Part shown: one piece after another, positions 26,159 through 27,782 of the stretch
Numbering within the stretch: position 1 is the stretch's first letter
How the letters are laid out: the number at the start of each line of letters is the position of its first letter
NCBI RefSeq assembly: GCF_015207375.1
Contig: NZ_JADEWY010000005.1
Coordinates: forward strand, 1-64,000
Source of the DNA: Coleofasciculus sp. LEGE 07092
GTDB taxonomy: Bacteria > Cyanobacteriota > Cyanobacteriia > Cyanobacteriales > Coleofasciculaceae
Direction of reading: 5' to 3'
Length of the DNA: 64,000 nt
Position numbers and translations under genes: made by a program
The notes under the pieces: generated by a model
What the model saw: only the letters and a program-made list of their open reading frames with translations
Database searches by the model: none
What the model was told of the DNA's origin: nothing

Positions 26159-27418
26159 GTTTCAATCCCTGATAGGGATTATAGAGGATTGCGACATCCG
26201 CTACATCCTGAATGGCGTCCAAGTAAAAGGTTTCAATCCCTGATAGGGATTATAGAGGATTGCGACTTATACCTATCCTCACACCTGTTATTCAGAAGTA
26301 GGTTTCAATCCCTGATAGGGATTATAGAGGATTGCGACCTGGGGCTACCTCAAAAATTACCTCATGAGGATGTTTCAATCCCTGATAGGGATTATAGAGG
26401 ATTGCGACCTTCATCAACTTGGCGATCACGGAAATAGATTGCTAAGTTTCAATCCCTGATAGGGATTATAGAGGATTGCGACTCATGCCGAACTACTGGC
26501 TGATCAGACCGAAGCTGTTTCAATCCCTGATAGGGATTATAGAGGATTGCGACCTAATGATAAATTACGACGCAGACTCTAGCCAAAAGTTTCAATCCCT
26601 GATAGGGATTATAGAGGATTGCGACTTACTAGTTTTATAGCACTTTTGCTACTTTTATAGGTTTCAATCCCTGATAGGGATTATAGAGGATTGCGACATT
26701 TGGTTATTCGCCGCCATTGCAGAGTAGGCTGATACGTTTCAATCCCTGATAGGGATTATAGAGGATTGCGACTAAATTGCAGCAGTACTTCCCCAAGGAA
26801 AAGCACGGTTTCAATCCCTGATAGGGATTATAGAGGATTGCGACGTAGCTCAGTGGTAGAGCAGCTATTTAATAGTTGGTTTCAATCCCTGATAGGGATT
26901 ATAGAGGATTGCGACTTGGCTGTTTTGCCTCTCAGTTCGGGAAAAACCCGTTTCAATCCCTGATAGGGATTATAGAGGATTGCGACCAAAGGCTTGAGCA
27001 GGATTGCCATTGAGTTCGCAGTTTCAATCCCTGATAGGGATTATAGAGGATTGCGACAATCTTTAGGTAAAGTTCCTCATCAATGGGTTCTGTTTCAATC
27101 CCTGATAGGGATTATAGAGGATTGCGACTAAAGGAAACTATCAGATGATGTTCCTGAAACTAGTTTCAATCCCTGATAGGGATTATAGAGGATTGCGACC
27201 TTCCTGTCTCAAATTTTGAAATAATTGCCCCATTAGTTTCAATCCCTGATAGGGATTATAGAGGATTGCGACGGACGAAGCGTTCCGCTCATTGCAAGCC
27301 AGCTACCTGGGTTTCAATCCCTGATAGGGATTATAGAGGATTGCGACCATCGATCATCTTTCCGAAGAAGCCTCGGAGTTGGTTTCAATCCCTGATAGGG
27401 ATTATAGAGGATTGCGAC
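26159..27418 (-). CRISPR. CRISPR array, 18 repeats and 17 spacers
   Basis: A 37-bp repeat (plus strand GTTTCAATCCCTGATAGGGA, continuing TTATAGAGGATTGCGAC) occurs 18 times, at 26159, 26230, 26302, 26372, 26446, 26517, 26589, 26661, 26736, 26808, 26879, 26950, 27021, 27092, 27163, 27236, 27311 and 27382. I see no sequence variation among the copies. Spacers are 33-38 bp. On the minus strand the repeat ends in GGGATTGAAAC, the usual 3' end that leaves the crRNA 5' handle ATTGAAAC, and has an AATCCCT/AGGGATT stem. Transcription is therefore predicted leftward, with the leader at 27419 onward. No cas gene is in the window, so the type cannot be fixed. Confidence 0.98.
26845..26878 (-). other. CRISPR spacer 10, resembling a tRNA D-arm
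   Basis: Between repeats 10 and 11 the plus strand begins GTAGCTCAGTGGTAGAGCA, which is the consensus tRNA position 7-26 region with a paired D-stem (GCTC/GAGC). The remaining GCTATTTAATAGTTG forms a near-perfect stem that does not give a standard seven-base anticodon loop in the canonical register. Because the array is probably read from the minus strand, the crRNA guide would be antisense to such a tRNA. Confidence 0.7.
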
Positions 27419-27782
27419 CGCAGGCATCCAGAACCCTTACCGTATTTAGTTTTCAAGGTGCGTTGGTGACAGTCTCCTCTCATAATAGCATTCCAGAGCC
27501 AAAGGTTGACAAGAGGAAATTTTTAAATCGGCTGAAATCCATTCATAGTAAGGCTTTCAGAAGCGGTGACACCCTCCTTTACAAGGTAAAGGCTGTAAAC
27601 CCTTATCCAATAAGGAATGTAGCCCGAAAATCCAAACAACTTCAGAAAACACCTACAGGTTGTCACCATCAAGGGAAAAAATCGAATTATCTCGCAATTG
27701 CTCACCGCCAATTCTCTCCATTTTACCCTGGCAATAAGGACAAAGAGAGTAAAAGCTAACGCAAATACCTCTTCAAGTACTC
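27419..27782 (-). promoter_or_regulatory. Predicted CRISPR leader region
   Basis: 364 bp with no supported gene between the last repeat (27382-27418) and the Uma2 gene. Repeat orientation places the array promoter and leader here, transcribing toward lower coordinates. AT-rich stretches such as AAATTTTTAAATCGG fit a leader, but no specific promoter elements could be fixed. Confidence 0.5.

What the first reader, a model, noticed from the sequence alone, without database searches (positions are those of the whole stretch)
26845..26878. CRISPR spacer that reads as a tRNA D-arm, with crRNA antisense to it
Seen: spacer 10 starts GTAGCTCAGTGGTAGAGCA on the plus strand, matching tRNA positions 7-26 with a GCTC/GAGC stem. 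Repeat orientation predicts a crRNA complementary to that tRNA. The following 15 nt do not give a canonical 7-base anticodon loop. In the canonical register the loop collapses to a 3-base loop; in a shifted register a 5-bp stem with anticodon UUA (reading UAA) is possible. Inference: the target is probably a tRNA gene on a phage or plasmid, and an RNA-targeting system could deplete a phage tRNA, possibly a suppressor. Self-targeting of a host tRNA is an alternative.
Basis: partly seen in the sequence, partly recalled or inferred. Interest (0 to 1): 0.75.

Follow-up and report, generated by a model that had tools for sequence, protein, structure and literature searches.

The report
CRISPR spacer from a tRNA-like gene
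One immune-memory entry in a cyanobacterium's CRISPR array was copied from a tRNA-like gene that is absent from its own genome and from every database searched, most likely carried by an unsampled virus; it is an unusual but essentially ordinary entry, and nothing shows that it acts by destroying a tRNA.

Summary
Window 26845-26878 is the tenth of 17 spacers in an 18-repeat array. Its first 19 nt are exactly a tRNA D-arm (G7-A26), and it is transcribed on the minus strand (leader at 27419+ shared by six arrays), so its crRNA is antisense to the tRNA strand. The repeat matches the array beside a complete type I-D cas locus in the same genome (36/37), so the expected action is PAM-dependent DNA interference, not tRNA depletion; a type III-B effector with no array found next to it leaves RNA targeting open.

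Self-targeting is very unlikely: the best host tRNA, tRNA-Thr(UGU), matches 27/34 but only 3/8 in the crRNA seed. No protospacer was found with <=3 mismatches in about 515 cyanobacterial genomes, nor exactly in IMG/VR, so the target is inferred. The D-arm is identical in tRNA-Thr of cyanophages and of the host. A freshwater cyanophage (S-CRM01) has an unannotated degenerate tRNA with the same D-arm and a collapsed anticodon hairpin.

The anticodon arm cannot be settled: the canonical register gives AAU, the collapsed one a 3-nt loop, and neither is beyond chance. A suppressor identity is not shown. Verdict: new member of a known kind, modest interest.

The parts
26159..27418 (-). CRISPR array, 18 identical 37-nt repeats and 17 spacers, transcribed on the minus strand
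   Evidence: (CRISPR-DR5 on minus strand)
26845..26878 (-). Spacer 10 (eighth from the leader); the + strand reads as tRNA positions 7 to about 41-44, the crRNA is its reverse complement
26845..26863 (+). tRNA D-arm GTAGCTCAGTGGTAGAGCA (G7-A26), identical to host tRNA-Thr and cyanophage tRNA-Thr; falls in the PAM-distal end of the crRNA
26864..26878 (+). Anticodon-arm-like tail GCTATTTAATAGTTG, unlike any host tRNA; pairs with the 5' (seed) end of the crRNA
27419..27640 (-). CRISPR leader, conserved in six arrays of the genome; end coordinate approximate
   Evidence: same sequence beside arrays on C127, C288, C183, C10 and C224

Best explanation
[quoted passage not shown] The likeliest source is a cyanophage that carries a tRNA cluster. 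Shown: the array, the transcribed strand, the type I-D repeat match and the mismatch to all host tRNAs. Inferred: the pre-crRNA is cut by Cas6d, and the crRNA (5'-AUUGAAAC-CAACUAUUAAAUAGCUGCUCUACCACUGAGCUAC) is loaded into the Csc1/Csc2/Cas10d Cascade, which recognises a GTN PAM beside the anticodon-arm end of the target gene and recruits Cas3d to destroy the element's DNA. Because transcription runs against the tRNA, the seed falls on the variable anticodon arm and the conserved D-arm at the PAM-distal end. That is why a spacer sharing a 22-nt exact run with a host tRNA-Thr should not attack the host.
For: Full I-D locus (Cas1, Cas2, Cas4, Cas6d, Cas5d, Cas7d, Cas10d, Cas3d) on C288, with its own array whose repeat differs by 1 of 37 nt and whose leader is the same. 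Host tRNAs: 27/34 at best, 3-4 of 8 in the seed for the four best. Nothing within 3 mismatches in 196 relatives and 386 phylum genomes, about 515 distinct. Cyanophage tRNA-Thr genes carry the identical 20-21 nt D-arm. Freshwater cyanophage S-CRM01 carries an unannotated degenerate tRNA with 21 nt identical (TAGCTCAGTGGTAGAGCAGCT) and a collapsed anticodon hairpin. Type I-D PAM GTN and in vivo DNA interference: PMC9123187, PMC10212523.
Against: No protospacer is known, so neither the PAM nor the carrier could be checked. None of the other 16 spacers gave a convincing match to phages or plasmids, so the array gives no independent hint of its targets. The array lies on another contig than the cas genes and has no cas gene among the flanking genes annotated. 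No expression data.
Confidence: 0.72

Rival explanations
1. The crRNA is used by an RNA-targeting type III-B complex of the same genome and cuts the tRNA or its precursor, depleting a phage tRNA.
For: Two III-B effector loci exist. One on C189 (Cas10b, Cmr3, Cmr4, Cmr5, Cmr6) shows none of the tested repeat motifs on its 10-kb contig. The crRNA is antisense to the tRNA as required. I-D Cascade itself binds ssRNA without a PAM in vitro (PMC9123187).
Against: The repeat belongs to the I-D locus. The other III-B locus (C79, with RT and Cas1) has its own unrelated repeat. A folded, modified mature tRNA is a poor antisense target (inference).
Confidence: 0.1
2. The target is a phage suppressor tRNA whose loss would block a recoded phage.
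For: Of 47 places in viral and genome collections matching AGAGCAGCTAT-N3-9-ATAGTTG, the only one that is a tRNA is an amber-suppressor (CUA) tRNA, one of a tandem pair, in a 155-kb phage.
Against: One case only; its loop is 4 nt longer than the spacer's. Nearby genes of that phage read normally under the standard code. The canonical register reads AAU.
Confidence: 0.06
3. Self-targeting of a host tRNA gene (autoimmunity or regulation).
For: 22 nt of exact identity with host tRNA-Thr(UGU), and 19 nt with the two other tRNA-Thr.
Against: Seed matches only 3-4 of 8 for these; no site within 3 mismatches in the genome other than the array.
Confidence: 0.03
4. The source is a Y RNA (YrlA) tRNA mimic rather than a tRNA.
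For: YrlA is Rfam's second match to the spacer (11.5 bits against 13.8 for tRNA). S-CRM01 carries a YrlA-like, permuted tRNA-like RNA in its tRNA cluster.
Against: The spacer's D-loop has the short tRNA-Thr form, and the match covers only the shared D-arm.
Confidence: 0.06

Closest known systems
Cyanobacterial type I-D CRISPR-Cas (Synechocystis 6803; PMC9123187, PMC10212523)
   Same: Same gene set, an AUUGAAAC-type handle, spacers of about 34-38 nt
   Different: This array is remote from the cas genes and holds a tRNA-derived spacer; the PAM could not be checked
tRNA-Thr genes of T4-like cyanophages (Syn1, S-RIM2, Sf-FS3)
   Same: First 20-21 nt of the spacer identical
   Different: Anticodon arm differs: 25-26 of 34 overall, 2 of 8 in the seed
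Degenerate tRNA-like element of freshwater cyanophage S-CRM01 (NC_015569.1 131970-132038)
   Same: 21 nt identical, collapsed anticodon hairpin, cyanophage tRNA cluster
   Different: 25 of 34 ungapped; different hairpin sequence; not the protospacer
tRNA-homing guide RNAs of V-K CRISPR-associated transposons (from own knowledge)
   Same: A CRISPR guide directed at a tRNA gene
   Different: Here the spacer sits inside a normal array between perfect type I-D repeats and does not match host tRNA genes; Cas12k was not searched for

Membership tests
Type I-D CRISPR-Cas array | Repeat shared with an array beside I-D cas genes | tested here: met
   36 of 37 nt identical and same leader as the C288 array next to Cas1, Cas2, Cas4, Cas6d, Cas5d, Cas7d, Cas10d and Cas3d
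Type I-D CRISPR-Cas array | cas genes adjacent to the array (usual, not obligatory: remote arrays are common) | tested here: not met
   The annotated genes around the window array are metabolic, signalling and structural; the cas genes lie on another contig
Type I-D CRISPR-Cas array | Protospacer flanked by a GTN PAM | not testable with these tools
   No protospacer found
tRNA-derived protospacer | D-arm with tRNA consensus and a 4-bp stem | tested here: met
   G7-A26 perfect; Rfam tRNA best of all families
tRNA-derived protospacer | Anticodon arm of 5 bp with a 7-nt loop | tested here: inconclusive
   Canonical register has U33, A37 and 2 of 3 testable pairs; the alternative 3-nt loop fold is preferred by Rfam and RNAfold; neither beyond chance. 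Real tRNA fragments of equal length score 18.8-25.9 bits against 13.8
tRNA-derived protospacer | Full-length tRNA containing the spacer exists | tested here: inconclusive
   None in the own genome, about 515 cyanobacterial genomes at <=3 mismatches, IMG/VR (exact), the INPHARED phages or PLSDB
Self-targeting spacer | Match in own genome including the seed | tested here: not met
   27 of 34 at best with 3 of 8 in the seed
Spacer against a suppressor tRNA | Anticodon CUA, UUA or UCA in the target | tested here: inconclusive
   Anticodon not determinable without the protospacer; one suppressor tRNA shares the anticodon stem
RNA-targeting type III guide | Array belongs to a type III effector | tested here: inconclusive
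   III-B on C79 has another repeat; no tested repeat motif was found next to III-B on C189
tRNA-homing guide of a CRISPR-associated transposon | Guide matches a host tRNA gene and lies beside transposon and Cas12k genes | tested here: not met
   No host tRNA gene matches and no such genes among the flanking genes annotated; Cas12k elsewhere in the genome was not searched for

The most novel reading that the evidence does not exclude
Some cyanophages carry tRNA-like genes whose anticodon arm has collapsed to a short hairpin (as in S-CRM01), acting as tRNA mimics or decoys, and this spacer is host memory of such an element. The guide discriminates it from host tRNAs by seeding in the collapsed arm.
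Probability: 0.12. Interest if true: 0.55.

Novelty: new member of a known kind. Interest (0 to 1): 0.3.

Why it matters
It shows a CRISPR array storing a piece of one of the most conserved gene families in the cell while apparently escaping autoimmunity, because the seed falls on the part of the tRNA that differs from the host. If the protospacer is found it would tie a cyanobacterial host to a tRNA-carrying phage and settle whether anticodon-less tRNA-like genes are real phage genes. A scan of 386 cyanobacterial genomes for a TGCTCTACC D-arm in antisense inside GGATTGAAAC-type arrays found only this spacer and one apparent chance match, so such spacers are rare.

Tried and rejected
Exact and gapped patterns in IMG/VR, GTDB genome contigs, phage and plasmid BLAST: no protospacer. 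The other 16 spacers against phages and plasmids: nothing convincing, so no PAM could be derived. RT-Cas1 acquisition from RNA considered: an RT/Cas1/Cas2 cluster exists on C79 but serves an array with an unrelated repeat, so it gives no support here. A group I intron in the anticodon loop was considered as an explanation of the odd tail and could not be tested without the target. A tRNA-homing transposon guide was set aside because the spacer is in a normal array and does not match host tRNAs; Cas12k was not searched for. Streptomyces phage tRNA-Thr is the best database match (29/34), but its hosts are actinobacteria; it is read as shared tRNA conservation.

Full report
WHAT IS THERE. The window is part of contig C122 of a 6.7-Mb draft genome, cyanobacterial by its Cyano-1 RNA and its gene content. 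The array at 26159-27418 has 18 identical 37-nt repeats and 17 spacers of 33-38 nt. Spacer 10 in + order, 26845-26878, is GTAGCTCAGTGGTAGAGCAGCTATTTAATAGTTG. Its first 19 nt are exactly tRNA positions G7 to A26, which is not chance.

ORIENTATION. Rfam CRISPR-DR5 matches every repeat on the minus strand. Five other arrays in the genome (C127, C288, C183, C10, C224) have the same leader, starting (C)GCAGGCATCCAGAACCC or a close variant, at the end that corresponds to 27419+ here. The array is therefore read on the minus strand, the spacer is eighth from the leader, and the crRNA is CAACTATTAAATAGCTGCTCTACCACTGAGCTAC behind AUUGAAAC.

WHICH SYSTEM. The annotated genes flanking the array are not cas genes. 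On contig C288 an array with the repeat differing by 1 of 37 nt lies directly beside Cas2, Cas1, Cas4, Cas6d, Cas5d (Csc1), Cas7d (Csc2), Cas10d (Csc3) and Cas3d: a complete type I-D system. An RT, Cas1, Cas2 and III-B cluster on C79 has an unrelated repeat. A second III-B effector on C189 shows none of the tested repeat motifs nearby. The parsimonious effector is type I-D, which recognises a GTN PAM and has been shown in vivo to attack dsDNA only; it binds ssRNA in vitro (PMC9123187, PMC10212523). Depletion of a tRNA is therefore not the expected mode of action, though a III-B contribution is not excluded.

NOT SELF. All tRNA genes found in the genome were compared. The three host tRNA-Thr match best (27, 25 and 24 of 34), with the first 19-22 nt identical, then tRNA-Asn (23). 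In the 8-nt seed at the crRNA 5' end these four match only 3-4 of 8. No site within 3 mismatches exists in the genome apart from the array, nor in 196 relatives or 386 phylum genomes. The geometry explains the tolerance: the conserved D-arm is PAM-distal and the variable anticodon arm is the seed. That explanation is inference from known type I behaviour.

WHAT THE TARGET MAY BE. No protospacer was found in INPHARED, PLSDB, IMG/VR or GTDB contigs. The D-arm is that of tRNA-Thr in T4-like cyanophages (20-21 nt identical). Freshwater cyanophage S-CRM01 has an unannotated tRNA-like element at 131970-132038 with 21 nt identical to the spacer. ARAGORN misses it, Rfam scores it 26.0 bits (cut-off 29), and it folds as a cloverleaf with a collapsed anticodon hairpin GCUUUC-GAUA-GGAAGC. 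It is the only IMG/VR contig with this D-arm followed by GCT-N1-7-ATAG, but that pattern was written after seeing it, so the hit is not independent evidence.

ANTICODON ARM. In the canonical register there is no indel: U33, A37, pairs A30-U40 and U29.G41, a U31/U39 mismatch (also seen in the Streptomyces phage tRNA-Thr), nominal anticodon AAU. Phage tRNA-Ile(AAU) exists but is rare; one was found. Rfam and RNAfold prefer a 5-6 bp stem with a 3-nt loop. On shuffled tails the canonical features arise in 11% and a hairpin of 6 bp or more in 5%, so neither is established. The spacer scores 13.8 bits where equal-length pieces of a phage and a host tRNA-Thr score 18.8 and 25.9, so the tail is atypical. 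The UUA register is sterically doubtful because C25 would be used twice.

SUPPRESSOR. A gapped search for the same anticodon stem in IMG/VR and GTDB returned 47 places. One is a tRNA, an amber suppressor that is one of a tandem pair in a 155-kb phage; ARAGORN was run on ten of the 47 and the others were judged from their sequence context. Local genes of that phage do not need TAG readthrough. Suggestive at most.

VERDICT. A real tRNA-derived spacer of a type I-D system against an unseen element. Rare but of a known kind.

Noticed in passing
L046 (G000:C86:85323-92388): Cluster of about 27 tRNA genes on one strand in the host genome, resembling the trn operon of Anabaena 7120 (PMC10272220).
   Followed up: partly
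L041:13266-14143: A HepT-like ribonuclease and MNT-like nucleotidyltransferase pair (toxin-antitoxin) inserted between cas10d and cas3d of the type I-D operon.
   Followed up: no
L135:114-182 (NC_015569.1 131970-132038): Unannotated degenerate tRNA-like element with a collapsed anticodon hairpin in the tRNA cluster of cyanophage S-CRM01.
   Followed up: partly
L141:2723-2837 (NC_015569.1 132222-132336): YrlA (Y RNA)-like or permuted tRNA-like RNA in cyanophage S-CRM01, T-arm before D-arm, 35.9 bits (below the cut-off of 69); the neighbouring 613-aa protein has no Pfam match.
   Followed up: partly
L073:2338-2490: Two tandem amber-suppressor (CUA) tRNA genes in a 155-kb phage whose neighbouring genes read normally under the standard code.
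   Followed up: partly
L043, L044, L060 compared with window 27419+: Arrays with a second repeat type (GTTTAAACTCCACTTAATCCCTATCAGGGATTGAAAC) share the leader of the type I-D arrays.
   Followed up: partly
L144:168-7563: A III-B effector locus (Cas10b, Cmr3, Cmr4, Cmr5, Cmr6) with none of the tested repeat motifs on its contig.
   Followed up: partly
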